This document shows positions 16,794 through 31,858 of a stretch of 64,000 bases of DNA, in pieces. The notes beneath the pieces were generated by a model, which did not search any database, was not told the DNA's origin, and worked only from the letters and a program-made list of their open reading frames with translations. Source of the stretch: Sulfurimonas sp. (GTDB taxonomy: Bacteria; Campylobacterota; Campylobacteria; Campylobacterales; Sulfurimonadaceae); assembly GCA_016744115.1 (NCBI GenBank), contig JADGEZ010000006.1, positions 1-64,000 of the forward strand, given 5' to 3'. Within the stretch, counting starts at the first letter, position 1. Each line of letters opens with the position of its first letter. Made by a program: the position numbers and the translations under genes.

Positions 16794-17582
16794 TTACTCT
16801 AAACAGTCGCTTATAGAGTAGAGTCCAATTTCTTTATCTACTAACCACGAAGCAGCTCGTATTGCACCTTTTGAAAATGTATTTCTCGAAGTTGCTGTAT
16901 GGTTTAACTCAATAAATTCCCCATCATTATAAAATCCAACAGTGTGACGACCAACTATATCACCACCACGAAGAGCCATAACAGCTATCTCATCTTTTGT
17001 TCTTTGACCGATGTTTCCATCTCTTCCACTTACTCGAACTTTATTTATATCTAAACCACGACCATGTGCAGCGGACTCACTCAGAGTTAGGGCAGTGCCA
17101 CTAGGAGCATCTTTTTTATGCTTATGGTGCATCTCTACTATTTCAATATCAAAACCCTCCAAAGCAGAGGATGCTTGATACACAAGCTTGTTTAAAAGAG
17201 CAATACCTAAAGACATATTGGTAGCATATAAAATAGGCATAACAGTACTTGCATCTTGGAGTAGGTTGAGCTGATAAGTATTTAATCCAGTCGTACCTAT
17301 GACTAAAGGCTTTGGAGTCTCTATAGCCGTTTCTAGTAAAGTTTCACAAGCATCAGGTAGTGAGAAATCCACAACAACATCACAAGCATTTAAAAATGAT
17401 TTCATATCTATCGTAATTAAAATAGAAGGATCAATAGAAAAATCAAGTTTATTTCTTACATATACAGTACTTACACTCATATCAGGAGTTTCTTTTAAAT
17501 CTTCTAAAAGTAATTTCCCAACTCTACCACTCGCACCAAATACACCAACTTTTATCATCTTTATAGCCTTAATTTTTTTCAT
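16794..17582 (-). CDS. dapB: 4-hydroxy-tetrahydrodipicolinate reductase
   Basis: [29 protein letters not shown]. Confidence 0.95.
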
Positions 17583-17647
17583 ATATTATATTTATAGCAC
17601 AAATATACATAGTGCAAGCTAAAACAAACAACTATTTCATACAGCCT

Positions 17648-17693
17648 GTCATTCTGAATTGGTATGTTCTTTGGGTGTCAAGTTAAGAGTGAC
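17648..17693 (+). repeat. Degenerate copy of the dispersed palindromic repeat
   Basis: GTCATTCTGAATTGG...GTGTCAAG...GTGAC. Confidence 0.4.
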
Positions 17694-17827
17694 ATAATTA
17701 AGAGAGTAAAACTTAAACTTAAGATAACCTAAATTTAAGCTTTTATTAAGCATGAAAAGATATACTTCCAACACTCAAATAGCTCTTGAATGAGAGGTAT
17801 TTAAATTAAAATAATAAAGGTTCAAGA

Positions 17828-18250
17828 ATGAAATTTACAAAAATTGCAACTTCTGAACAGATTGACCAAAAATGGGTTCTTATCGACGCTGAGGGTAAAA
17901 CTTTTGGTCGTATGATGACTGAAGTAGCTACTCTTCTTCGTGGTAAGAGAAAAGTTTGTTGGACTCCAAATATTGACTGTGGTGACTATGTGGTTATCAT
18001 TAACGCTTCTAAGGCTAAATTTAATGGTATTGGAAAGATTAAAAACAAAGAGTATTTCTTTCATTCTGGTTACTTCGGTTCAACGAGAAGTGTTAAAATG
18101 ACTGAGCTTTTAGAAAAAAATCCTGAGAAGTTATTTAAACTAGCTGCTCGTGGTATGCTTCCTAAAACTAAGCTTGGTGCTAAGATGATTAAAAAATTAA
18201 AAATTTATGCAGGTGCACAACATCCACACTCTGCACAACTAGCTAAGTAA
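17828..18250 (+). CDS. rplM: 50S ribosomal protein L13
   Basis: Typical L13 sequence (WVLIDAEGKTFGRMMTEVATLLRGK); adjacent to rpsI. Confidence 0.97.
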   Translation: MKFTKIATSEQIDQKWVLIDAEGKTFGRMMTEVATLLRGKRKVCWTPNIDCGDYVVIINASKAKFNGIGKIKNKEYFFHSGYFGSTRSVKMTELLEKNPEKLFKLAARGMLPKTKLGAKMIKKLKIYAGAQHPHSAQLAK

Positions 18251-18262
18251 GGATTACACCAG

Positions 18263-18655
18263 ATGGCAATAAGAATATATGCAACAGGTAAGCGTAAAGC
18301 TTCTATCGCAAAAGTATGGTTAACTCCAGGTACAGGTAACATCACTATCAATGGTCTTTCTTTAGACGCATGGTTAGGTGGACTTGAAGCAAAAAAACTT
18401 CGCGTGAAACAACCATTGGTTCTTTCTAAACAAGATACTTCGGTTGATATCGTAGCTGCTACTTTAGGTGGTGGTTTTGGTGGTCAAGCGGATGCACTTC
18501 GTCATGGTATCTCTAAAGCTCTTGTTGAGTTTGATCCTTCTATTAAAGCTATCCTCAAACCAGAGGGTATGATGACTCGTGATTCGCGTGTTGTTGAGCG
18601 TAAGAAACCAGGTAAGCGTAAAGCTCGTCGTTCTCGTCAGTTTTCTAAGCGTTAA
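18263..18655 (+). CDS. rpsI: 30S ribosomal protein S9
   Basis: [14 protein letters not shown]...[14 protein letters not shown]. Confidence 0.98.
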
Positions 18656-18785
18656 GAGTTCTTTTACTACAATTTTTATCAAGGCTTTTTGTCTTGGTGA
18701 AATCTTTTTTACTTTCTTTTTTTTAACAATCACTTTCTAACAAACTTTTATATATAATGTCTCAATTAATTTAGGATACCTTTAT

Positions 18786-19928
18786 ATGAAAAAAACTGCA
18801 ATATTTATTTTTATACTTCTCTGCGTTAGTGCCGCCTTACCGATAATTGGTAATCAGATTATAGAAGAAACCTTAGAGAAAAAGATTACTAAGTTAGAAT
18901 CTAAAGGGATGAACATTCTCAAAAAAGAGAGAAAGTCAGGATATTTTAATACCTCAAGACATTATGAAATTTTGCTTGATGAAACTAAATACGGTATAGA
19001 TTTAAAATACTCAAACATCCCTTTTACTGAAGCAGTCTCTTTAGATTTATATCCATTGTCTGTGCCTTTAAATATTTTAAACGATTTAGAAAAAAAAGAT
19101 AAAGGTTTTGCAAATTTTATTAAAGGGTTTGTTGCAGGTAAAGGGATTTTGTATCACATAAACTATAACCTTATGGATGCTAATTTTGATGGTTTTATTA
19201 AAGATATAGATGAGATTTATACTATGAAAAATAATTCAATTTTCAAGATAAGATTTTTAGGAGCTAGTTTTAAAGGAAATAGTGATGCAGGCTCTCCATT
19301 TCGTATTGAGACATTTGTAAAAAAAATACACTTACTTGTTGAAGATCGTAAAGATTTAATAGCATTAGATATAGCTAATATAGAGCTAAATGCTAGTGTA
19401 TATAGCATAAATGAAAAAGTTCAATTGGATTCTCAGGTATATTTTGAGAACATGTATTTGATCTCAAATAATAAAGATTTAAATATCAGTTCATTTGACT
19501 ATGATGCAAATTTCTCAAACATAGACATGAAAGCTTACAAAGAGTTTCTTGGCTCAAAACAATCTAAAAAAAACTTAGTAAAGCTGCTCTCACAAGGTGT
19601 GGATATAAACATCGCTAAATTATCTTTAAAAAATATAAATAGATATGGTAAAGATTTAAAGGGCTTTACACTAAGTTCTGATATGCACATCAAAGCAGAC
19701 AAAAACTTAGCTTTTAAGGTGCGAATTTCACCTCTTCTAGCCTTATCTAACTTAGAGATTGATTTTAAGTCAAAAATTTCTAAAAAGATTATTGATGAGA
19801 TTGTTAAAGATTCGTTTATACCAAAGAAGTTTATGAAATATCGTACTTCATCAGGTGATGATGTTGTTTTTGATTTTTCTTATGAGAGCGGTGTTTTAAT
19901 AGTAAATGGTAAAACTATTTTAGGCTAA
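18786..19928 (+). CDS. DUF945-like protein
   Basis: N-terminal membrane segment; 380 aa; DUF945-like pattern (from memory). Confidence 0.45.
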   Translation: MKKTAIFIFILLCVSAALPIIGNQIIEETLEKKITKLESKGMNILKKERKSGYFNTSRHYEILLDETKYGIDLKYSNIPFTEAVSLDLYPLSVPLNILNDLEKKDKGFANFIKGFVAGKGILYHINYNLMDANFDGFIKDIDEIYTMKNNSIFKIRFLGASFKGNSDAGSPFRIETFVKKIHLLVEDRKDLIALDIANIELNASVYSINEKVQLDSQVYFENMYLISNNKDLNISSFDYDANFSNIDMKAYKEFLGSKQSKKNLVKLLSQGVDINIAKLSLKNINRYGKDLKGFTLSSDMHIKADKNLAFKVRISPLLALSNLEIDFKSKISKKIIDEIVKDSFIPKKFMKYRTSSGDDVVFDFSYESGVLIVNGKTILG

Positions 19929-21442
19929 TGATGAAGACAATATTTTTAAGTATCATCCTTTTTACAGAGATATTAGCATCAACCTTGCATCTCGCTACAT
20001 CAGCAAATCCCTCAAGGTTAAACCCTATCTTAGCAACTGATTCATCTTCCTCAGTTATTGCAGGGTTTATATTTAATGGACTTGTAAAATACGATAAAGA
20101 CTCTTCAACTATCATAGGCGATTTAGCAAGTTCATTTTATTATGAAAATAATACAACTCTAATTTTTGAGTTAAATAAAAAAGTATTATGGCATGATGGC
20201 GAAGCTTTTAGTGCAAAGGATGTTGTTTTCACATACAAAACTCTCATCTCAGATAAAATATCTTCCCCCTATAGTGCTAACTTTAGATTTGTAAAAGATG
20301 TAGAGATTATTAACAATCACAAGATAAGAGTGACATATACAAAACCATATTTTAAAGCCTTAGAAACATGGATGATGGGGATAATCCCTCAACATCTCTT
20401 AAAAGATACAAAGAACCTAATGAGTGCAAAGTTTAACACAAAACCTATAGGAACAGGAGCGTATAAACTTCATACTTTAGAGCATTCAAAAAATATTGTT
20501 TTATCCGCTAATGAAGAATACTTTTTAACAAAACCAAAAATAGATAAGATTTCTTTTCATGTCATCGCTGATCCAATGACAAGATTTTTAATGTTAAAAG
20601 CATCTTCTTTAGATGTAGGAGCTATAGAGCCCATACAGTATGAGAGGCAACTAAACGATTCGTTTTTTGAAAACTTCAACATATACGAAGAGATAAGTCA
20701 TTCATACACATACCTAGGCTTTAATCTTAGACGAGAGAAGTTTCAAAATCCTAAAGTAAGACAAGCCTTGTCTTTAGCTATTGATAGAGATGAACTTGTT
20801 AAAATTTTATTTTTTAAACATGCAAAAGTTTGTACTGGTCCTTTTTTACCAGCTACAGCAGCCTTTAATACAGATGTAAAAGCACCCACTCGTGACATAA
20901 AAAAAGCGAAAAGACTTTTAAATGAAGCTGGGTATGATGCTAACAATCCCTTTGAATTTGAGATTGTCACTTCAAACTCAAGCAGTATTAGACCTTATGC
21001 TGCTCAAATATTGCAACACCAGTTAAAGCAGATTGGAGTTATTGTTAAGCTTAGGGTGATGGAGTGGCAAGCATTTTTAAACATGGTTGTATTTCCCCAT
21101 AAATTTGATGCTGTACTTTTAGGATGGGGTTTATCATCCACTCCTGACCCTTACCTATTTTGGCATACAGATTCTGATAAAAAAGGTGGCTTTAATTTAG
21201 TGGGCTATAATAATCCTAAAATTGATAAGATGATTGATGCTTCTCAAAGTATGATAGATAGAGATAAACTAGCTCTTATATGGAAAGATATGTTTAAAAT
21301 AATAGTAGAAGATAACCCCTATCTTTTTTTATACATTCCAAATTCTATTACCGCCGTAGATAAAAATATTAAAAATATACAACCAAGTTTAAGTGGTATT
21401 TGGCACAATCAAATTTTATGGGAGAAAGATATTCACAAGTAG
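19928..21442 (+). CDS. Peptide ABC transporter substrate-binding protein (SBP family 5)
   Basis: LHLATSANPSRLNPILATDSSS, KVLWHDGEAFSAKDVVFTYKT, VRQALSLAIDRDELV. The 3' end contains the att repeat. Confidence 0.85.
   Translation: MMKTIFLSIILFTEILASTLHLATSANPSRLNPILATDSSSSVIAGFIFNGLVKYDKDSSTIIGDLASSFYYENNTTLIFELNKKVLWHDGEAFSAKDVVFTYKTLISDKISSPYSANFRFVKDVEIINNHKIRVTYTKPYFKALETWMMGIIPQHLLKDTKNLMSAKFNTKPIGTGAYKLHTLEHSKNIVLSANEEYFLTKPKIDKISFHVIADPMTRFLMLKASSLDVGAIEPIQYERQLNDSFFENFNIYEEISHSYTYLGFNLRREKFQNPKVRQALSLAIDRDELVKILFFKHAKVCTGPFLPATAAFNTDVKAPTRDIKKAKRLLNEAGYDANNPFEFEIVTSNSSSIRPYAAQILQHQLKQIGVIVKLRVMEWQAFLNMVVFPHKFDAVLLGWGLSSTPDPYLFWHTDSDKKGGFNLVGYNNPKIDKMIDASQSMIDRDKLALIWKDMFKIIVEDNPYLFLYIPNSITAVDKNIKNIQPSLSGIWHNQILWEKDIHK
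21403..21419 (+). repeat. Left attachment-site repeat
   Basis: GCACAATCAAATTTTAT, identical to 29435-29451. Confidence 0.8.
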
Positions 21443-21532
21443 TCACAACTCCCTATACAAGCCCCTTAACAGCGATACTTTAAGAATAGATTAAACTACA
21501 AATAGCTACAATAACGCATAAAATGTTACAAA

Positions 21533-21576
21533 AAAGTACACCTTAAAGTACACCTTTTTGTTTTCAAAAGTACACC
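21533..21576 (+). promoter_or_regulatory. Putative integrase arm-type sites (left)
   Basis: AAAGTACACC at 21533, 21545 and 21567. Confidence 0.55.
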
Positions 21577-21597
21577 CTAGCAATTTAAAGGATTTTA

Positions 21598-22800
21598 ATG
21601 AGTGAATACATAAGCATAAATATACAAAATAAGGACTGCAAAGGGATGTTTCTTTTTGCTAAAAGTGAGAGTAAAGAAATACTAAATGTTAGTGAGGCAA
21701 ATAAACTTATAGGTAAAGTATTTAAAATTCAGTTAAGAACTAGAGTAGATGGAGTGAGAGGAAAAAAAACATTTTCTTTTGAAAAGCATAAAACTACTTT
21801 TTTAAAAGCTATTGAGTTTGTGGCAAGTAAAAGAACTGGAGCGAGACAAAAACTAAAAGAGGAGGGAACACTTAGAAAAAAGGTAATTAAAAAAGTGATA
21901 GACGCAAAGAGATTATTTGTAGATGAGATAGACCCATTCTTAGACACCAAGTCAATCGTAGTGAGAGACAATACTATAAGTGTTTATAAAACCGCCCTAA
22001 AAACTCACGCTAAACCATTGCATAAGATATTTATAGAAGATATTCAAATCAAAGATATACAAGATATTGTATCTAAGCTATCAAAGAGTAAAGCCCCTGC
22101 AACAGTCCAACTCTTTGAGCGTTCATTAAGAGTATTTTTAAAAGAGTTAAAAGTACCTATCGCCTCAGCGTGGAATGAACTCAAACTACCAATAGTAGAT
22201 AATGTTAAAAAATATACACTCAAACTTGAAGATACAAAAAGGATAATTTCTTGCATGAGAAACTACAGCGGTACTACAGTAGATGGAGAAACCTTTTATG
22301 TATTTGAAGAGGTTAGAAATATGTTCACATTCTTACTTACAGGTCGCAGAGTAAATGAAGTGATAGGATTAAAATACAGTGATATAGATTTAGAGAACAA
22401 AACTTTTACAATACCACCTGCAAGAGCTAAGGGCAAGGTAGAGTTAAAATTTAACATTGATGATAATCTATTACAAGCCATTCAAAGCCAAGCACGGATA
22501 AATAACATAGACCTAAGCAAAGAACTACAAGACAAAATCTTATTTGACTACTGCCGAGAAACACCACGCTATCACTTCCAAAAACTCTTAGTATCTATGG
22601 GCTTACCAAAGTTAAGGCTACACGACATAAGGCACATGTTAGCAAGTACACTTATACAAAATGAGGTAGCTATAGCAGATGTATCAGTAATGCTAGGACA
22701 TTCAAGTATAAAGACAACCGAAAAGAGATATGCGAACAAATCGCCAGACCAAGCAAGTCGAGCTACTAATGCTTTGAACAATATTATAGGGGGTGTGTGA
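21598..22800 (+). CDS. Tyrosine recombinase/integrase
   Basis: LLTGRRVNEVIGLKYSDID, LRLHDIRHMLASTLIQN, MLGHSSIKTTEKRYANKS. Confidence 0.92.
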   Translation: MSEYISINIQNKDCKGMFLFAKSESKEILNVSEANKLIGKVFKIQLRTRVDGVRGKKTFSFEKHKTTFLKAIEFVASKRTGARQKLKEEGTLRKKVIKKVIDAKRLFVDEIDPFLDTKSIVVRDNTISVYKTALKTHAKPLHKIFIEDIQIKDIQDIVSKLSKSKAPATVQLFERSLRVFLKELKVPIASAWNELKLPIVDNVKKYTLKLEDTKRIISCMRNYSGTTVDGETFYVFEEVRNMFTFLLTGRRVNEVIGLKYSDIDLENKTFTIPPARAKGKVELKFNIDDNLLQAIQSQARINNIDLSKELQDKILFDYCRETPRYHFQKLLVSMGLPKLRLHDIRHMLASTLIQNEVAIADVSVMLGHSSIKTTEKRYANKSPDQASRATNALNNIIGGV

Positions 22801-23357
22801 TGAATACTAATAAAAAATTAAGTGTAGGTGAAAATCCAAAGGAGCTTTTAGAAGTAATAAAACAAATACACGGTATAGATTTAATTCGAGATTTTATTAA
22901 AAGTAGTAATAAACTAGCAAGAAGAAAGAATAAAAGTGTTAATAGTTATGTAAAGATTGCTATATATGTGTATGAGTTAGTACATCATGAGGGTTATTGT
23001 AAAACTAGGGCAATTGAAAAGGTGGCTGATATATATAGTCTTAAAGATAATACAGTTAGAAACCATTGTGCATAATTTGATAAAGAGGCTAAAGAATATG
23101 ATTTTTATTCTTTTGGTGTGTTCATTGATTTTTTACAACAAGGAGCTATTTCTCAGGGGTATCAAAATAATTCTACATATGAAATAATAAGACTTGCTTC
23201 AAGTCACAATGATATAAGTGAAAAAATAGGAAATACTTACTACTATAAATATAAGAATTTAACAGCTAATAAAAAAAAGAAAATGACTACTAGTAATATA
23301 TATAAATTTGTAAATCCATTAACTGAACAACAATATACTAAAGATGAACCATTTTGA
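22797..23357 (+). pseudogene. Hypothetical element protein interrupted by one in-frame TAA (ORFs 22797-23075 and 23118-23357)
   Basis: Both ORFs are in the same frame; a single TAA at 23073-23075 separates ...VRNHCA from FDKEAKEYDFYSFGVFIDFLQQ.... Confidence 0.55.
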
Positions 23358-23513
23358 TACTAAAGTTATACTAAATACATACTAATAATGTACTACTAAA
23401 CTATCAAGCCGATACCAATGCAATACCACTAGAAAAGCCCTATTTCGTGGTATTTACTTAGTGTTAAAAATATGCAATAATTCCCTATAAATAACAATAT
23501 AGGAGCTTATCAC

Positions 23514-23723
23514 ATGATAACAAACTACGACAACTTAATCCCCCAAGGTGTACTCTTCAATCTTAGACAAATAGAAGATATGAACTTAATTAAAATGGAT
23601 ATGGCTAAAAAGCTTATCTCTAATAATGCACTAGAAACAGTACGCATAGGTACAAAACTTCATATCTCAAGAACCGAGCTGATAAGATACCTCAACGATA
23701 ACACAAGCCAAATATCAGCATAA
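23514..23723 (+). CDS. AlpA/excisionase-like helix-turn-helix protein
   Basis: 69 aa; MDMAKKLISNNALETVRIGTKLHISRTELIRYL resembles an HTH_17/excisionase fold. Confidence 0.55.
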   Translation: MITNYDNLIPQGVLFNLRQIEDMNLIKMDMAKKLISNNALETVRIGTKLHISRTELIRYLNDNTSQISA

Positions 23724-23848
23724 GGCGGTGGCAACAGCTACCGCTTAGACTTCATACAAAACTAACTTATGAAGTCTTAGGGCTAGCTTCCCATACCCAT
23801 TTAGAGGGTAGATACAAATATTTGTAAATTTATTACAAAGTAAGAATA

Positions 23849-24628
23849 ATGCAAAATTTTAAAATAGACACCATCAACGGAAAAGATGTAGTTATAGATA
23901 TTACAAAACTGATTAGTGATGAGGTGCTTTATATAAATGCTACTAAGATAGCTAAACAATTTGGAAAAGATAAATATAATTTAAGAGATTATTTTAAGTC
24001 TACTGCTTTTTTAGAGTATGAAAATGCTATTTCTAAAGTGAGAAAAAACCACCACTTTAAAACAGAAGAAAAAGGCTTAAGATATTCTATAAAAGGAAAA
24101 TACGGAGGTACTTATCTTCATAGTGATTTAGTCATAGTATTTTTAAGATGGTTAAATGTAGATTTTGCCGTTCAATGCGATATGTACATCAAGAACACCA
24201 TCCAAGAGATACACAATGATAAAATAATTTCTAATGCAACAGCTCAAGCAAACAAAGAAAATACAGACTGGATACAAGCAAGAGAAAAAGCAACAGATAC
24301 ACGCAATAAGCTTACCGATGTGATTAAAGAGTTTTGCCAATACGCCCAACAACAAAGAGGCTCATTTTATAAAGATGGTAAATGCCCCTACTATGCAAAA
24401 CTTACAAGCCTGGTATATAAAGCCTTGAAAATTAAGAAGCCTAAAGGTACAAAGACTATAAGAGATGTATTTAATGGTGCGGTGGTTCAAAAGATAGAGA
24501 ACCTAGAAGAGATGCTAATAGAACTTTTAAAAAGCTACATACAGCAAGAAACAGAATATCACGAAGCTTTTAAAATCACTCAAGAGATAATCAAGTACGA
24601 AGTAAGCCTATTGGATGAGGTAGCTTAA
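23849..24628 (+). CDS. KilA-N domain protein
   Basis: YINATKIAKQFGKDKYNLRDYFKS...GGTYLHSDLVIVFLRWLNVDFAVQCDMYI. Confidence 0.85.
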   Translation: MQNFKIDTINGKDVVIDITKLISDEVLYINATKIAKQFGKDKYNLRDYFKSTAFLEYENAISKVRKNHHFKTEEKGLRYSIKGKYGGTYLHSDLVIVFLRWLNVDFAVQCDMYIKNTIQEIHNDKIISNATAQANKENTDWIQAREKATDTRNKLTDVIKEFCQYAQQQRGSFYKDGKCPYYAKLTSLVYKALKIKKPKGTKTIRDVFNGAVVQKIENLEEMLIELLKSYIQQETEYHEAFKITQEIIKYEVSLLDEVA

Positions 24629-24952
24629 ATGAAAAAGCCTAATTATGTATCACACTATCTAGTGCTTAGTGATTTACTAGCAAACATTGATGTGAGAAAA
24701 CATAGCGATATTGTGTTCTATCTTACTTCACGAATAGAAAATATAAAAAGTGATTTAGTAAAAAGCGGTATTGAGTTTATCGAAGATGTTTCAAGGGAAA
24801 GTAGATACTCTCACTACAAGCCTTATATCTTACAGCCTACAACTGATAACCTCAACAAAGCAAAAGAATTGCTTAAAAAATATACAACTGATGAGGTGCT
24901 ATCTTTTTTAGAAGATAAGCCTTACTCAGATGAAAGTAAAAGGGGTTATTGA
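24629..24952 (+). CDS. Hypothetical element protein
   Basis: 107-aa ORF tightly packed between neighbours. Confidence 0.55.
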   Translation: MKKPNYVSHYLVLSDLLANIDVRKHSDIVFYLTSRIENIKSDLVKSGIEFIEDVSRESRYSHYKPYILQPTTDNLNKAKELLKKYTTDEVLSFLEDKPYSDESKRGY

Positions 24953-25604
24953 TTCCCTAAACTTTAGTAGCGGTAACTTAGAAGCGTTATTTAAAAATGA
25001 AGAAAATTATAGCATAGAAGCAGTTAAAAGTATAGGGGTATTTGAACCTAAGCTATGGAAAGAAATCTTTAACAAACCATTAACAAAAAACATAGTAGAA
25101 GCTAAAATACTCCACACTACAACAGGTTTAACCTTGCCTATCAAACGCTTTTCAGTAAGCCAAACGAAACAGACGATAGAGTTTGCAGGGCTTCACGGTT
25201 ACAATGATAAATCTAAACACCTAAGTGAGCTACTTAAAGAGATATGGGAACATATACAAGACGAAAGAATAACTAGGTTAGATGTAGCGATAGACTTTAA
25301 AGGAATGATACCTCTAAGGGTTATTAAAAAGCTTTGTAAGGATAGAGAACCTTTTAGGTTTTGGAATACAACATACTACAAAACTAAAAAAGAAAAAAGA
25401 ACAAATACTCGTTTGAATATTAAGACTTACAATAAGAGTAGAAGAATTAATAATTTAACAGAGGAGGTAGAAAGATTAGAGTTTAGTTTTACAAGTCAAT
25501 ATTTACAGAATATTACTATTAAAAACTTAGATAAAGCGTTTCAAAAAATGGAGAAAACTATCAAGCGAATTAGTGACTTAGATGTAGAAATATTGTACCT
25601 CTAA
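24930..25604 (+). CDS. Rep_trans-like replication initiator
   Basis: RITRLDVAIDF, RLNIKTYNKSR and EVERLEFSF in the order seen in rolling-circle Rep_trans/RstA-like proteins (from memory). Confidence 0.5.
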   Translation: MKVKGVIDSLNFSSGNLEALFKNEENYSIEAVKSIGVFEPKLWKEIFNKPLTKNIVEAKILHTTTGLTLPIKRFSVSQTKQTIEFAGLHGYNDKSKHLSELLKEIWEHIQDERITRLDVAIDFKGMIPLRVIKKLCKDREPFRFWNTTYYKTKKEKRTNTRLNIKTYNKSRRINNLTEEVERLEFSFTSQYLQNITIKNLDKAFQKMEKTIKRISDLDVEILYL

Positions 25605-25783
25605 GTTATTAACCGTACTTTTTCATCCAAAACCCCAACAAAGCCCAAAATATAGGGCTTAAAGAGGGGTGAAAAAGTGAACGCTAAAAACAGCCCTAAA
25701 ATGAGCTTACAAAAGATAAGATAAACAAATATAATGAGTAAGAAAAAATCAATTAAAAACACAAAAGAATAAGTGAGGAATAA

Positions 25784-26056
25784 ATGAATAAAAATAGACT
25801 TAAAAAGCTAGAGGATTTATCAGGTGCAGAGGAAACAGAACCAACAAAGACTATTACATTTTCTTGTGACGATACAGATGGAATTTGGAGCAGAGAGGAT
25901 AATAGTATTATTACAGAAGAAGAAGTAGCAGTTTATACAACTGATGATACATATTTCGTAATACTAATAACCTGGACAAGTAATATTAAACTTACTGATG
26001 AGGTATCTCGTAGTCTTGAAGTAGCAGAGAAAAAGTATCTTAATAAAAAAGGATGA
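25784..26056 (+). CDS. Hypothetical element protein
   Basis: 90-aa ORF; stop overlaps the next gene. Confidence 0.55.
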   Translation: MNKNRLKKLEDLSGAEETEPTKTITFSCDDTDGIWSREDNSIITEEEVAVYTTDDTYFVILITWTSNIKLTDEVSRSLEVAEKKYLNKKG

Positions 26057-26514
26057 ATATGGCACGAACAACAATAACAGATAAGATAATCACTCAATGC
26101 AAAGATTTATCCTCACAAGGCTTTAGTAACATTATGATTAGTAAATCTTTGAACATTGCAATAGCAACATTATCAAAGAATAGGAAATTAGTACAATCTA
26201 TTCAAGAGGGTAAGCAAGATTTAGCAACAAGAGTAACAAAAAGTATCTTAGATAGCCTAGACGAAAGCCAAGATAGGTTATTTATTGCTAAAAGATTAAA
26301 CCTCTTTAACCCTCAGATTAATATCAAAAAACCATCCAATGCAAAAGAAGCACTTAACAATTTATCAACAGCCATTAAGCAATATGCAGATGGAGAGATT
26401 AACGAGAGCCAACTAAGGACTATCGAGGCGGTTACAAATAGTTATGTTAAAGCTTATGAAGCTACAGAACTAGAGGAGCGAATACAAGCACTAGAAAAGT
26501 TAAAAGAAACCTAA
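26053..26514 (+). CDS. HTH protein resembling phage terminase small subunit
   Basis: N-terminal HTH (GFSNIMISKSLNIAIATLSKN) followed by a helical region; 153 aa. Confidence 0.4.
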   Translation: MNMARTTITDKIITQCKDLSSQGFSNIMISKSLNIAIATLSKNRKLVQSIQEGKQDLATRVTKSILDSLDESQDRLFIAKRLNLFNPQINIKKPSNAKEALNNLSTAIKQYADGEINESQLRTIEAVTNSYVKAYEATELEERIQALEKLKET

Positions 26515-26551
26515 GAGGTGGCTATCACTCAAAAATGAGTAATGAGAAAAA

Positions 26552-26572
26552 GAGGGGGTAACGAATCCCCTC
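26552..26572 (-). terminator. Second terminator-like hairpin of unit A
   Basis: Minus strand GAGGGG-N8/9-CCCCTC followed by TTTTTCTC; equivalents at 26865-26885 and 27166-27185. Confidence 0.55.
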
Positions 26573-26696
26573 AAAAAGCTAATACAGTTCTACAAGGTAG
26601 CCGAGTATTAACAACAAGTTAATTGTTTTTAGAAACAAAAAAGTTTCCTTTATTGCAATCTAACCCCATAACCCACCATCTACAAAAGTATAGACC

Positions 26697-26781
26697 AAAA
26701 AAAAGCCCTCATACTAATTAAAGTACAAGGGCTTAATTGCAATAAAGAGGTAGTTATCCTCAAAACTATTAACTTGTTTCA
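26697..26781 (-). ncRNA. Putative small RNA, copy A
   Basis: Extended -10 TGATATACTT upstream on minus; hairpin GAGG-ATAACTA-CCTC; terminator AAGCCCTTGTAC...GTATGAGGGCTT + T8. Confidence 0.55.
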
Positions 26782-27008
26782 GTAGAAGTATATCAAAATA
26801 TCATTTAATAGTCTAACGTGTACCGATGTGATACAGCTTGTAAAGAGATTAGTAATGAGAATAAGAGGGGTTTATGAATCCCCTCAAAAAGCTAATACAG
26901 TTCTACAAGGTAGCCGAGTATTAGCAACAATAAGAAAACTCGATACAAGAAGTAACCCCCTTATATTACACTCTAACCCCATAACCCACCATCTACAAAA
27001 GTATAGAC

Positions 27009-27091
27009 CAAAAAAAAAGCCCTCACATTAATTAAAATGCAAGGGCTTAAGCGTATGAGGTAATAAGCCTCCGAGTTTTCTTTTTGTACAA
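27009..27091 (-). ncRNA. Putative small RNA, copy B
   Basis: AGATATACTT -10-like box; hairpin GAGG-CTTATTA-CCTC; terminator AAGCCCTTGCAT...ATGTGAGGGCTT + T run. Confidence 0.55.
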
Positions 27092-27302
27092 GCAAAAGTA
27101 TATCTGAATATTATTTAATAGTCTAATCTAATACAGTTTGTAAGTAAAGATTAATAATGAGAAAAGAGGGGCGATTAACCCCCTCTCCTTACTAAAATAG
27201 CTTAGTTAAGTAACCAAGTATTAGCAATGTGATTATAACCTTTTCCAAGGTTTCAGCCTTTAAAATAGCACTCCCACCCAACACTACCCACTTTTACAAG
27301 CT

Positions 27303-27385
27303 AAAAAAAAAGCCCAACTACCCATAAAAAGTAGTTGAGCTTTGCAGTACTATAAGGTAATCAACCTTAGATTATAATCATCACG
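27303..27385 (-). ncRNA. Putative small RNA, copy C
   Basis: TGATATACTT box; hairpin AAGG-TTGATTA-CCTT; terminator AAGCTCAACTAC...GTAGTTGGGCTT + T9. Confidence 0.55.
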
Positions 27386-27422
27386 ATAAAAGTATATCAA
27401 AATATCGTTTAATAGTCCGAAA

Positions 27423-27586
27423 TTAACCCTCAAACTCTTTTTTAACCAATACAGCAATAATCTTACTCATTGTAATACCTCTTTTTCAGAAAGTATTTTA
27501 AGTCTCCTATGCGTTTCTTCGCTCACTCTCATATTTTTAACACTATTTAGTTTATTAATTCTTTTCAAAAAATCCCCTACTTGCAT
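27423..27586 (-). pseudogene. Ribbon-helix-helix protein gene with an apparent 1-nt frameshift
   Basis: MQVGDFLKRINKLNSVKNMRVSEETHRRLKILSEKE continues as ITMSKIIAVLVKKEFEG only after a frame change. Confidence 0.5.
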
Positions 27587-27795
27587 ATACCGCTATCTTT
27601 AAGCATACTTTTTAACTCTTTACAGTCTTTGTTTTCTATGTAGAGTTTAAGCCATGATGAGACCCAATACGGATAACCTCTATCATTTGTACCCCATCCA
27701 TTAACAGCATTATAAGAAGTATCAAGTATTTCAGCAAAAGATTTTTTAGTTAAGTTTGCCTTTTTTAATAATTCTTTAAATTTATCTCTATCCAT
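27577..27795 (-). CDS. Small HTH repressor-like protein
   Basis: 72 aa; LLKKANLTKKSFAEILDTSYNAVNGWG resembles an XRE-type HTH. Confidence 0.55.
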   Translation of the reverse strand: MDRDKFKELLKKANLTKKSFAEILDTSYNAVNGWGTNDRGYPYWVSSWLKLYIENKDCKELKSMLKDSGICK

Positions 27796-27821
27796 TTATA
27801 ACCTCTATTTTTATATTTAAC

Positions 27822-27931
27822 ATACAAAAGTATATCATATTATATAAAAAAGATACAAATGTATTTATATTAAGTTCTATTTAAAATACATTAGTATATA
27901 CTTCTTGCATATAAAAAGTACATAAGTACTT
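27822..27931. promoter_or_regulatory. Cluster of four putative operators (TAC-N4-GTA palindromes)
   Basis: ATACAAAAGTAT 27822-27833; ATACAAATGTAT 27853-27864; ATACATTAGTAT 27886-27897; AAGTACATAAGTACTT 27916-27931. Confidence 0.6.
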
Positions 27932-28237
27932 AATAGGACAAAAACAATGAACAACAAAACCCAACCAACATAAAAAGAAACCTCAAAAGAAGTATCTAAT
28001 CCATCTTATAAAAGCATAGCTACATAAGAAAGACGATAGCAAGGCTAGAAGCGATTAAAAACAAAAGAGGGGGAAACAATGGAGCAAGTAATAAAAACAG
28101 CAAAGAAACCACCTTAGGTATGTTTTTTGTGTATATCGTATGATTAACTGATGAACACCTACAGCCGAGGTAACTTAAACTCAAAGTTTACCCTTAGCTA
28201 GGTACAGAAGAACCAAACCCAAATAAAAGAGGACACT

Positions 28238-28351
28238 ATGAAGATAAAAGTATTTACAACAAGCAACAGCTACAAAATAGTCAATGTATCAAATGAAGAT
28301 GATATTAAAAAGATAGCAGATAAATTTAACAGATGGGAGTATGTACTATGA
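28238..28351 (+). CDS. Hypothetical small protein (37 aa)
   Basis: MKIKVFTTSNSYKIVNVSNEDDIKKIADKFNRWEYVL; upstream AGAGGA; ATGA overlap with the next gene. Confidence 0.5.
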   Translation: MKIKVFTTSNSYKIVNVSNEDDIKKIADKFNRWEYVL

Positions 28352-28704
28352 GTAAACAAACAAAACTAAAAAGGATGTACACCATGAACCAGTACTACAA
28401 GTATAAATACTTAGACTTAGAGATAAGAGCAGTAGAGGGTATTAATATCGTTGTAAATGAAGCAATAGATAACCTCTTAATTGATATTGAAAATATAAAA
28501 GGTAAAAAGGAGCGTATGACTATGATGTTAGATTTTATGCTAACTACAAGGGTACAAATGAATTTACTAGGTCGTGCCATATCTTCACTAGATGGATGCA
28601 ACAATACTTTTAACTTGAATGGGGATAAGTTGCCAAATAAACATATAAAACCTCACTCAGATAATGAGTTTAAGAAGCAGCACATAAAGTTTAGAGTTGG
28701 ATAA
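28348..28704 (+). CDS. Hypothetical element protein
   Basis: The ORF track begins at 28333; ATG at 28348 is coupled to the upstream stop. Confidence 0.5.
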   Translation: MSKQTKLKRMYTMNQYYKYKYLDLEIRAVEGINIVVNEAIDNLLIDIENIKGKKERMTMMLDFMLTTRVQMNLLGRAISSLDGCNNTFNLNGDKLPNKHIKPHSDNEFKKQHIKFRVG

Positions 28705-29135
28705 TACTGATCATCTAGTAGAAAGTAATAGCTACTTCACTTTTATGTAGCTATTAGATGTAAATATCGGATAGACTTCATACAAAAAAATATTCAATAA
28801 CAAAACCCACACACTACAAAATCAAACCATCAATAGAAATCATTTAAGGTACTTTGGAGCTTTTTTTGTGTTGGGAGAGTGGCAAGACGCCCACAAAAAA
28901 ACTATTTATCATCTTTTAAAAGTCACCCCTTTTTATCTTACCGTAGGTACTTTGGGGGGAATTGTTAAAAAAGAGGGGAAATAAGGAAAAATCAACCCTT
29001 GATAATCTATCTCGTAGGTTTTAATAATATGAGCTACAATCTTGAATATTTAAGGAGTTTTAGCAAAAGTTTTTTAAACAGCTAATAAAACTTAATATGC
29101 TACAATCGCATACAAATAGCTATCAAAGGATATTT

Positions 29136-29333
29136 ATGCACACTATAAAATTACAAGTAGATGATACAATATACAATGATATTATAAAAAGCGGTGTAAA
29201 TATACAAGAAGAGTTAAAGAATGCACTCCATAAACTTATATATAAAACAGAGCATAAAATAGCAAGTGATATAAATCAATCCATGCAAGATATAAAGCAA
29301 GGTAAATCTAAGCCAATCTCAGAGCTACTATAG
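29136..29333 (+). CDS. Antitoxin-like small protein
   Basis: MHTIKLQVDDTIYNDIIKSG...SMQDIKQGKSKPISELL resembles type II antitoxins; no partner toxin adjacent. Confidence 0.4.
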   Translation: MHTIKLQVDDTIYNDIIKSGVNIQEELKNALHKLIYKTEHKIASDINQSMQDIKQGKSKPISELL

Positions 29334-29367
29334 TATTAAATGTTATAAAAGATATAAATCCATAAAA

Positions 29368-29389
29368 AAAGGACACCTAAAAGTACACC
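29368..29389 (+). promoter_or_regulatory. Putative integrase arm-type sites (right)
   Basis: AAAGGACACC at 29368 and AAAGTACACC at 29380; same 12-bp phasing as the left pair. Confidence 0.5.
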
Positions 29390-29434
29390 TTTTAAAAACA
29401 CAGCTACTTTAAGCCCCTACAGTAGGCAAACCTT

Positions 29435-29451
29435 GCACAATCAAATTTTAT
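29435..29451 (+). repeat. Right attachment-site repeat
   Basis: GCACAATCAAATTTTAT, identical to 21403-21419. Confidence 0.8.
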
Positions 29452-29452
29452 T

Positions 29453-29491
29453 AAAAAAGAAAGCCCTTAACAAGGAAGAACTTTCTTTTTT
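29453..29491. terminator. Bidirectional terminator downstream of pflA and the right att repeat
   Basis: AAAAAAGAAAG...CTTTCTTTTTT inverted repeat with inner CCTT-AAC-AAGG. Confidence 0.7.
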
Positions 29492-29494
29492 ATC

Positions 29495-31858
29495 TTATAA
29501 ATCTTCCATTGAACTTTTGGCAAGATTTGCCCATGGGGATGAGCTATCGGCGTCTATAGACTTTTGGTAGGCTTCTTTTGCTTCATCGTTCCTCCAAAGT
29601 TTTGATAGTATTGAACCGAGTAAATATTTTTGTCTTGCTCTGTTTGATTTTTTTAGATTGACCTTGTCAAGGGAGAGGATTATATCCAAAGCTTTATCTA
29701 GGTTTTGCATATTTAAGTAAGCCTGATACATCGTAAACTCTACAAAAGGACTTTGAGCAAAAGAAGAAGATGAATTTTGAATTTTAGCAACCTCCTCTCC
29801 ATATTTTATGACAAGATTGTCATCTTTAATATCATTTCCCATACTCATTACTGATACATATCTCTCTATATCTTTATAATCTCTTTTAAATATTTTTTGA
29901 ATATTTACAATTGCTTTTAATAATTTATCATTTTTCTCTAGCCTTTGATAGGTATCAAATATAATTCTATATATATCTTTGTATTTTGAATCCTTTTCAT
30001 CTGCGATTAATAGCATTAACTCCTCTGATGCTTCTATAACATTACTATAATTCCCAGTTGCAAAATCTACTTTGATATACCTGTATAACCATAATTTTCT
30101 CAAATTCAAGTCTTTAGACTTTAAATTTCTAGCTGAAACCTCTTTTGATAAACTATAATTACCCCCCATCATAGAACATTCATATATCCCTTCATCCCAT
30201 TCGTTTGAAAGTGTAATATTATAATCATTTGAGATATTTAAAACCTCTCTACATTCTTTATTTTTTAATGCTAACTTCATAACAGCAATAGCTGAATCAA
30301 CTATAATATCCTCTTTATCTTCGTAAAATTCTGCGTCAAGTTCTATTATAGACTCTTTCATGTCCAATACAAGAGAATATTTTTTATTTTCAAACAGTAA
30401 CTTTGCCTTTTCATATACGGCACGATTTCCTATAGTATCAGTATCATAGACTTCTATGAGATTATCTAACTCTTGTAATTTCACTGAATAGTTTGCATCA
30501 TTAGTATCAAAAAAGAGAGCATCCTTTGCCACCTCTACCATCTCAATAAATAAGCCATCATCATATTGACTAATATAATCATTTAATGCTAAAAGTGCTT
30601 TTTGTTTATCCTCAGTTTTTGATAGCCAAATTGCTGTATCTTTTAATAAGTTCTCATATTCATCATGTTTATTATCCGTAGCATCTACTATTGATTTTGC
30701 GATTGCAGCAGCGGTACTGTACTCTTTTTCATCAGCAAATTTATACATCATATCTAAGGTATTTGCTAAATTTTTCATAAAAAAATCTGATTGAGTATTT
30801 ACAATTTTCATAATATACTCTGATGCCTTTGTTTTATTACTATCATGTATAACTTTATAATTTGCAAGTCTGTATGCAGCACTTAAGGCTATTTCAACCT
30901 CTTTAGTTTCATCTAGTGCTTTTTTATAATAGTACAAAGCTTTAGAAGCTCCACCATCTCTCTCTAGCATCTCTGCTTTGTAGATGTATGCCCATTCAAC
31001 TTGTATCGAATTTTCATGTTCATTAAATAATCTATCAAAAAAATAATCAGCATCACTACTCATACCCACTTCTGCATAAGCTTTAGCAACCAAGGCTAAG
31101 ACCTCTGGTATATTTTCATCTGAAGAGTATTCTCTTAAAAACTCTTTAGACAAAGAAATAACATTATCGTTATCATTTAATTTTGTATATATTTTAATTT
31201 TATAGTAGATAAATTCAGTATTAAAAAGTGAGGAAGGAAACTCTTCAATTGCCTCATCAACTAATTCTAAACATAGTTCATATTTTTCTTCCTTATAGAA
31301 TTTTTTTATTTTTAAATAATCAGTAACATCACCTACTCTTTTAAGATGGACAGGATTACCTTTTATATCTAAACTTCCAACAAAGGGTAGCATATTTGAA
31401 GCTGAATGGTAAGGAAAGTTTATCGCTTTTTGTGATGGATTTTCTTCTTTAATATATGGAAGTATTTCCTTATATCCTACTATCATCCAATGATCTGAAA
31501 TTTTTGCATTTGCTTTATAAACAGTTTCATCTTTTGTCATGTCAAAAACCATAGGATAGAGTTTAATTTTTTTAAAAGGGGTAATTATTAAAAAAAATGT
31601 GTCTTTTTTAATTTTATTTTTAATTTTGAAAAAACTATTTTGTAAATTTTTAATTTTAACTGAGGGTCTTTGATTAAATGCACATACCACTTTTGTAACT
31701 ATATCAAAGTCATCTATTATCTCTTGACAAAGAAAAGACTTAGGATTTTTTAGATGCAAGGTCGAATACTGTTGAAAATCCTCTTTTGCTCCGCTGAGAG
31801 TTATCTCAAGAGAAAAGAGATTCAAAGAGAGTAAAAAGAAGAGTAAATATTTTAACAA
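29495..31858 (-). CDS. pflA: TPR-rich PflA-like flagellar motor protein
   Basis: 787 aa with TPR-like repeats, immediately downstream of nuoN as in Campylobacter (from memory). Confidence 0.7.
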   Translation of the reverse strand: MLKYLLFFLLSLNLFSLEITLSGAKEDFQQYSTLHLKNPKSFLCQEIIDDFDIVTKVVCAFNQRPSVKIKNLQNSFFKIKNKIKKDTFFLIITPFKKIKLYPMVFDMTKDETVYKANAKISDHWMIVGYKEILPYIKEENPSQKAINFPYHSASNMLPFVGSLDIKGNPVHLKRVGDVTDYLKIKKFYKEEKYELCLELVDEAIEEFPSSLFNTEFIYYKIKIYTKLNDNDNVISLSKEFLREYSSDENIPEVLALVAKAYAEVGMSSDADYFFDRLFNEHENSIQVEWAYIYKAEMLERDGGASKALYYYKKALDETKEVEIALSAAYRLANYKVIHDSNKTKASEYIMKIVNTQSDFFMKNLANTLDMMYKFADEKEYSTAAAIAKSIVDATDNKHDEYENLLKDTAIWLSKTEDKQKALLALNDYISQYDDGLFIEMVEVAKDALFFDTNDANYSVKLQELDNLIEVYDTDTIGNRAVYEKAKLLFENKKYSLVLDMKESIIELDAEFYEDKEDIIVDSAIAVMKLALKNKECREVLNISNDYNITLSNEWDEGIYECSMMGGNYSLSKEVSARNLKSKDLNLRKLWLYRYIKVDFATGNYSNVIEASEELMLLIADEKDSKYKDIYRIIFDTYQRLEKNDKLLKAIVNIQKIFKRDYKDIERYVSVMSMGNDIKDDNLVIKYGEEVAKIQNSSSSFAQSPFVEFTMYQAYLNMQNLDKALDIILSLDKVNLKKSNRARQKYLLGSILSKLWRNDEAKEAYQKSIDADSSSPWANLAKSSMEDL

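What the first reader, a model, noticed from the sequence alone, without database searches (positions are those of the whole stretch)
21403..29451. Compact satellite-like mobile element with Rep-like, KilA-N, AlpA-like and TerS-like genes
Seen directly: exact 17-bp flanking repeats, an integrase at one end and about ten small packed ORFs. No capsid or tail genes and no conjugation genes are visible. Established knowledge: phage-inducible chromosomal islands combine int, an AlpA-type regulator, a replication gene and sometimes a small terminase. The combination here is consistent with a small phage satellite or integrated ssDNA-phage-like element in Campylobacterota.
Basis: partly seen in the sequence, partly recalled or inferred. 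Interest (0 to 1): 0.7.

Follow-up and report, generated by a model that had tools for sequence, protein, structure and literature searches.

The report
Rolling-circle phage satellite with toxin-like modules
An 8-kb mobile island in a Campylobacterota genome is most likely a small phage satellite that copies itself with a plasmid-type rolling-circle initiator and carries three copies of what looks like a previously undescribed family of tiny RNA-controlled toxin genes.

Summary
21403-29451 is bounded by an exact 17-bp repeat found nowhere else in the genome. It carries an intact tyrosine integrase, an AlpA-like gene, a KilA-N gene, a Rep and a TerS-like gene; no capsid, tail or conjugation gene was recognised. 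The Rep call is confirmed (confident model; best solved match RepDE-type rolling-circle initiators). The TerS call is supported through homologues (5 of 6 family members match a TerS family).

The same int-AlpA-Rep core occurs sporadically across Campylobacterales at different tRNA, tmRNA and rpsU sites. In several islands packaging genes follow it: TerS, HNH+TerS, TerS+TerL, and in one viral contig a full capsid set (capsid-forming-PICI layout). The best reading is a PICI/PICMI-like satellite with a Rep_trans-type initiator in place of the usual primase. Phage dependence is inferred, and no empty site was found.

They belong to a Campylobacterales-wide, type I toxin-antitoxin-like family with no Rfam match. 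Peptide conservation and locus-specific RNA pairing are shown; toxicity is not.

The parts
21403..21419 (+). left 17-bp repeat (attL core), inside the 3' end of the substrate-binding-protein gene 19928-21442
   Evidence: exact repeat, unique to the two ends in the genome
21530..21576 (+). GTACACC repeats, putative integrase arm-binding sites; matching copy at 29365-29393
21598..22800 (+). tyrosine integrase, 400 aa, open
   Evidence: PF00589 5e-22, phrog_1 9e-41
22797..23357 (+). int-overlapping gene (position of PICMI iolg), broken by an in-frame TAA at 23073-23075
   Evidence: ORFs 22797-23075 and 23118-23357 lie in one frame; iolg is needed for excision in PICMI115 (PMC10803314); no sequence homology to iolg shown
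23514..23723 (+). AlpA-like HTH gene, probable excisionase/activator
   Evidence: HTH_17 weak (E 0.022); 58% and 53% identical to genes in L140 and L144
23849..24628 (+). KilA-N domain protein
   Evidence: PF04383 5e-15
24629..24952 (+). o107, small gene just before Rep
   Evidence: 66% identical homologue at the same place in L136
24930..25604 (+). Rep, rolling-circle initiator with RepDE-like fold
   Evidence: pLDDT 91.6; PDB 4cij/4cwc/4cwe E 5.7e-7 to 1.1e-6
25784..26056 (+). o90, unknown
26053..26514 (+). TerS-like packaging protein, 153 aa
   Evidence: homologues match phrog_309 TerS up to 9.2e-13 and annotated phage TerS; window protein itself not significant
26579..26792 (-). module C: -10 TATACT 26792-26787, RNA1 about 26780-26703 with terminator 26734-26703, micro-ORF 26638-26579 MFLKTINLLLILGYLVELY
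26892..27102 (-). module B: -10 27102-27097, RNA1 about 27090-27017, micro-ORF 26948-26892 MYRVFLLLLILGYLVELY
27192..27396 (-). module A: -10 27396-27391, RNA1 about 27384-27309, micro-ORF 27248-27192 MEKVIITLLILGYLTKLF
27577..27795 (-). cI-like repressor, 72 aa
   Evidence: phrog_8898 1.7e-18; homologue beside the same module in a Mu-like prophage (L064)
27822..27929 (.). four RTACNNNNGTAY palindromes spaced 31-33 bp: putative cI operators
   Evidence: 4 of the 6 matches in 64 kb fall in 108 bp; about 2.7 expected in the whole window
28238..28704 (+). o37 and o123, small genes facing away from cI
29097..29333 (+). o78, unknown
29435..29451 (+). right 17-bp repeat (attR core)

Best explanation
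The element is an integrated phage satellite of a Campylobacterales-wide lineage, possibly impaired in excision. A CI-like repressor on clustered operators keeps it silent (inferred). On infection by, or induction of, a helper phage (inferred), AlpA plus integrase excise it at the 17-bp cores. The RepDE-like Rep then nicks its origin and replicates it by rolling circle into concatemers (fold shown, activity inferred), and its own TerS steers that DNA into helper capsids (homology shown, function inferred). Three same-strand antisense-RNA/micropeptide modules beside cI probably act as a type I toxin-antitoxin-like addiction or abortive-infection cassette: short RNA1 pairs with the ribosome-binding and start region of the downstream 18-19-aa hydrophobic peptide mRNA and keeps it off until RNA1 decays (pairing potential and peptide conservation shown, toxicity inferred).
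For: Ends: unique 17-bp repeat and arm-like repeats. Rep fold. TerS. Island family: Rep in 5 of 60 near relatives and 16 of 399 order genomes in 9 genera, with int and an AlpA-like gene at tRNA-Leu, tRNA-Arg, tRNA-Ser, tmRNA and rpsU sites. The TerS-like gene is found with int, an AlpA-like gene and an RCR-type Rep in G228, G217, G157, G206 and G108. Packaging genes follow Rep elsewhere: Terminase_4+HNH (L007), Terminase_2 and Terminase_2+Terminase_3 (L010, L009), and connector, head completion, capsid, HNH, TerS, TerL, portal and protease in viral contig L190, whose Rep is 65% identical. Modules: 13 copies, cognate RNA1-target duplex -29.3 versus -16.2 kcal/mol non-cognate, 0 of 20000 permutations; 10 further copies not used to build the model, -38.2 versus -25.0, 0 of 20000; micro-ORF codon changes 68% synonymous versus 25% expected; -10-like box upstream of RNA1 in nearly all copies; survey.
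Against: No helper phage identified, and no DNA evidence of excision, replication or packaging. The window's own TerS-like protein has no significant family hit by itself and its fold model (pLDDT 73) has no significant structural match. No empty site found: the flanking genes are not neighbours in relatives. The int-overlapping gene is broken, so the copy may not excise. Toxicity of the micropeptide is untested.
Confidence: 0.74

Rival explanations
1. An integrative mobilisable element or integrated rolling-circle plasmid that spreads by conjugation of a helper ICE or plasmid; Rep serves as origin nickase/relaxase (as MobT-like Rep_trans proteins do) and phages are not involved.
For: Rep has the plasmid RepDE fold; Rep_trans proteins are known as relaxases of integrative elements (general knowledge).
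Against: No plasmid record (PLSDB) matches the Rep homologue tested; no mobilisation gene; the recurrent partners of this Rep are TerS, HNH, TerL and in one case capsid genes.
Confidence: 0.14
2. A remnant of an ordinary temperate phage reduced by deletion.
For: Phage-like cI/operator region, KilA-N, TerS; one broken gene.
Against: The compact int-AlpA-Rep plan recurs in islands of 4-7 kb with matched ends, e.g. 4.06 kb bounded by a 32-bp tRNA-Leu repeat in G228; the Reps tested have no match in INPHARED phages.
Confidence: 0.07
3. An integrated ssDNA (inovirus-like) phage.
For: Rolling-circle Rep; one Rep homologue touches the G2P family Phage_CRI at E 0.005.
Against: No Zot, coat, adsorption or assembly genes; a terminase gene implies dsDNA packaging.
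Confidence: 0.02
4. For the RNA/micropeptide modules: not a toxin-antitoxin but a C4/CI-like antisense switch or leader peptide controlling something downstream.
For: Topology (short RNA upstream on the same strand, two-arm complementarity to the start region, possible shared promoter) is that of P1 C4 (recalled knowledge).
Against: No gene follows within the window units, which end in a terminator-like hairpin; peptide under strong purifying selection; modules occur in unrelated chromosomal contexts; no Rfam family matched.
Confidence: 0.2

Closest known systems
PICMI (phage-inducible chromosomal minimalist islands, Vibrionaceae; PMC10803314)
   Same: Order int, int-overlapping gene, alpA, small gene, replication gene; no capsid genes; small size; rolling-circle/concatemer strategy
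   Different: Rep_trans-fold initiator instead of the DUF3987/DUF5906 primase; carries a TerS-like gene, which PICMIs lack; own cI region; not in fis
Gram-negative PICIs (PMC6092414) and capsid-forming PICIs (general knowledge)
   Same: int, AlpA, replication, packaging slot; relative L190 has a cf-PICI-type capsid cluster
   Different: No pri-rep; the window element has only a TerS-like gene and a phage-type cI
RepDE/pT181-type (Rep_trans) rolling-circle initiators
   Same: Fold (4cij, 4cwc, 4cwe); invariant R116-x-D118, Y167-x-K169 and R182-x-E184 are candidate catalytic residues (not checked against the solved structures)
   Different: About 14% identity, 224 aa, in integrated islands; no Pfam family recognises it
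Type I toxin-antitoxin systems (Ibs/Sib, TisB/IstR, ZorO/OrzO, AapA/IsoA) and P1 C4 antisense RNA
   Same: Small hydrophobic peptide under an antisense RNA that covers its translation start
   Different: Antisense RNA lies upstream on the same strand with its own terminator; different peptide family; no Rfam match

Membership tests
Phage satellite (PICI-like) | integrase with matched attachment repeats, no structural genes of its own | tested here: met
Phage satellite (PICI-like) | AlpA-type regulator | tested here: met
   weak HTH_17 but close homologues in AlpA position
Phage satellite (PICI-like) | phage-dependent induction and packaging | not testable with these tools
   needs a helper phage and bench work
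Gram-negative PICI | primase/replication gene pri-rep | tested here: not met
   no such gene among ORFs scanned with Pfam/PHROGs; Rep_trans-fold protein instead
PICMI | integrase, AlpA, DUF3987/DUF5906 primase, fis site | tested here: not met
   no primase hit and not at fis; works like one, not filed as one
Capsid-forming PICI | capsid, portal, TerL gene cluster | tested here: not met
   absent from the window element; present in relative L190
Rep_trans-type rolling-circle initiators | RepDE fold | tested here: met
Rep_trans-type rolling-circle initiators | significant sequence-family match | tested here: not met
   no significant match
Terminase small subunit | match to a TerS family | tested here: met
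   phrog_309 for 5 of 6 family members, best 9.2e-13, not for the window protein alone; annotated TerS of Roseobacter phages for the L136 homologue
Type I toxin-antitoxin | small hydrophobic peptide ORF under selection | tested here: met
Type I toxin-antitoxin | antisense RNA complementary to the toxin mRNA, locus-specific | tested here: met
   predicted pairing; transcripts not observed
Type I toxin-antitoxin | peptide is toxic and RNA rescues | not testable with these tools
   needs expression assays
C4 antisense RNA (Rfam) | covariance-model match | tested here: not met
   no hit with E up to 1; none at gathering

The most novel reading that the evidence does not exclude
Campylobacterota host an undescribed satellite lineage (down to about 4 kb: int-AlpA-Rep-TerS) built on a plasmid-type rolling-circle initiator. 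This one carries a triplicated array of a new Campylobacterales-wide type I toxin-antitoxin-like family with a same-strand, C4-like antitoxin RNA whose pairing arms have diverged between copies, so that the units are largely orthogonal.
Probability: 0.5. Interest if true: 0.78.

Novelty: new variant of a known kind. Interest (0 to 1): 0.62.

Why it matters
It would extend phage satellites to a phylum where the literature searched here shows none, and show satellites swapping a primase for a plasmid-type rolling-circle initiator, with versions carrying TerS only, TerS+TerL or a full capsid set sharing one core. The micropeptide/antisense family is simple, widespread and easy to test, and could be a tractable model of how cognate antisense-target pairs diverge.

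Tried and rejected
Empty site by comparison: SBP genes of relatives end in ..GIWHN...WEK and in many of them a HAD-hydrolase gene follows; the right-flank TPR gene lies far from SBP in relatives with single-contig genomes, and in this genome the HAD gene is on another contig, so flanking order is rearranged and no empty junction exists to compare. Rfam, viral-contig scans for the module, phage and plasmid tblastn for Rep and phage tblastn for the window TerS: nothing. PDB sequence search for Rep and fold searches for o153: nothing significant. Defence genes (PADLOC): only a KilA-N candidate family. Papers on type I systems in Sulfurimonas or in phage satellites: none.
Full report
OBSERVATION. 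The element spans 21403-29451 (8049 bp). The 17-bp repeat is exact, at 21403 and 29435, and occurs only there in the 2.05-Mb genome even with one mismatch. A second repeat near both ends (29 nt, 93%) with clustered GTACACC motifs looks like integrase arm sites. Pfam and PHROGs find integrase and KilA-N clearly, a weak HTH_17 at the AlpA-like gene and a cI-like protein (phrog_8898, 1.7e-18); no capsid, tail or conjugation family was found.

REP. The 224-aa protein has no significant Pfam, PHROGs or PDB sequence match. From an alignment of 14 homologues (A5) the model has mean pLDDT 91.6, and its six best PDB matches are rolling-circle initiators (4cij, 4cwc, 4cwe; E 5.7e-7 to 1.1e-6). Invariant Y167-x-K169, R116-x-D118 and R182-x-E184 are candidate catalytic residues (inference).

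TERS. The 153-aa protein has no significant hit alone. Its homologues do: phrog_309 terminase small subunit in 5 of 6 members, best 9.2e-13; the L136 homologue also matches annotated TerS of two Roseobacter phages (E 1e-8 and 5e-7). The o153 fold model (pLDDT 73, N-terminal HTH) gave no significant structural match, so TerS rests on homology and position.

A FAMILY OF ISLANDS. Rep homologues occur in 5 of 60 close relatives, the window's own genome included, and in 16 of 399 genomes of the order, in 9 genera. Their neighbourhoods mostly repeat one plan: integrase, often a gene overlapping or abutting it, an AlpA-like gene, usually a small gene, Rep, then a variable part. They sit beside tRNA-Leu, tRNA-Arg, tRNA-Ser, tmRNA or rpsU (and the rpsU gene read), several with repeats at both ends, e.g. 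32 bp of tRNA-Leu 4.06 kb apart in G228, 18 bp in G012 (rpsU) and 15 bp in G011 (tRNA-Arg). The variable part is often packaging: HNH + Terminase_4 TerS (L007), Terminase_2 TerS (L010), Terminase_2 + Terminase_3 TerL (L009), or the window's TerS family (G228, G217, G157 with this Rep; G206 and G108 with another Rep). A 9.3-kb IMG/VR contig (L190) with a 65% identical Rep carries connector, head-completion, Phage_capsid, HNH, TerS, TerL, portal and protease genes, the gene set of a capsid-forming PICI (general knowledge). This makes a satellite much likelier than a plasmid-like element.

COMPARISON WITH PICMI. PICMI115 has int, a gene overlapping int by 4 nt (iolg, needed for excision), alpA, up1, prim and up2, replicates by rolling circle and lacks packaging genes (PMC10803314). 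The window element has the same layout but a different replication protein and a TerS-like gene. Its int-overlapping gene is one frame with an internal TAA at 23073-23075; if this gene matters for excision as in PICMI, this copy may be impaired (inference).

REGULATION. The cI-like gene (minus strand) is separated from the rightward genes by RTACNNNNGTAY palindromes: four lie within 108 bp, spaced 31-33 bp, while the whole 64-kb window has six and about 2.7 are expected. A phage-type lysogenic switch is the likely reading.

THE ARRAY. 26579-27396 looked empty. On the minus strand it is three units, each with a -10 box, a short RNA ending in an intrinsic terminator, a conserved leader, and a TTG-started 18-19-codon ORF with an upstream purine stretch: MEKVIITLLILGYLTKLF, MYRVFLLLLILGYLVELY, MFLKTINLLLILGYLVELY. 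DNA similarity led to matches in 22 relatives, not all of them complete copies. A covariance model from 13 copies finds it in 59 of 135 genus genomes (by my count of the list, 53 hits in 33 genomes at E below 1e-8; weaker hits may be chance) and in 10 of 81 genera of the order (the weaker of these may also be chance). Two independent tests support the design. First, the 5' part of RNA1 pairs with its own downstream start region far better than with other copies' (-29.3 versus -16.2 kcal/mol, 13 copies; -38.2 versus -25.0 in 10 copies not used for the model; 0 of 20000 permutations each). Second, single-base codon differences among 28 micro-ORFs are 68% synonymous against 25% expected, with entropy highest at third positions (pairs share ancestry, so the count is not a probability). 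One copy stands beside a homologue of the same cI in a Mu-like prophage (L064). No Rfam family matched, and no paper in the library links type I systems with Sulfurimonas or phage satellites. Toxin action is inferred from size, hydrophobicity and control layout only. Whether the mRNA has its own promoter or arises by read-through of RNA1 is open.

ATTACHMENT SITE. The left core lies in the codons HNQIL near the end of the SBP gene, whose C-terminus (WEK..) is intact as in relatives; the right core is followed directly by the terminator of the TPR gene. SBP and TPR are not neighbours in relatives and the HAD gene that follows SBP in many of them is on another contig here. The element therefore sits at a rearrangement junction, and empty-site evidence could not be obtained.

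VERDICT. The additions are the Rep_trans-fold replication class, the wider island family including a capsid-forming relative, and the micropeptide/antisense array.

Noticed in passing
L134 8703-12790: A 4.06-kb island between exact 32-bp tRNA-Leu repeats (integrase, short ORF, likely AlpA, small gene, Rep, TerS-like gene, small gene), among the smallest satellite-like elements seen here.
   Followed up: partly
L190 1-9340: Viral contig with cf-PICI gene set (capsid, portal, TerL, protease) and a Rep 65% identical to the window's.
   Followed up: yes
L138 9871-14481, L139 10214-11489, L141 3613-5943: Variant islands of the same Rep lineage carry very large uncharacterised proteins (776 and 1048 aa where complete) after Rep in place of TerS.
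   Followed up: no
L008 11379-14147: dnaG next to the rpsU-integrated island appears to contain an intein (insert after CFGC, resuming at ..GNCGAGGD; 922 aa).
   Followed up: no
L068 320-600: A micropeptide module of the HTVGYLL type looks interrupted by a palindromic insertion of about 250 bp between leader and ORF; other copies are orphan or degenerate (L069, L075, L076, L077).
   Followed up: partly
L079 2382-11397: Several group II intron matches (three D1D4-6, two Intron_gpII) on an 11-kb contig that also bears a micropeptide module.
   Followed up: no
window 16794-31858: dapB, rplM-rpsI, SBP and TPR are arranged differently from relatives (TPR is usually next to dapB), so chromosome rearrangement breakpoints coincide with the element.
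   Followed up: partly
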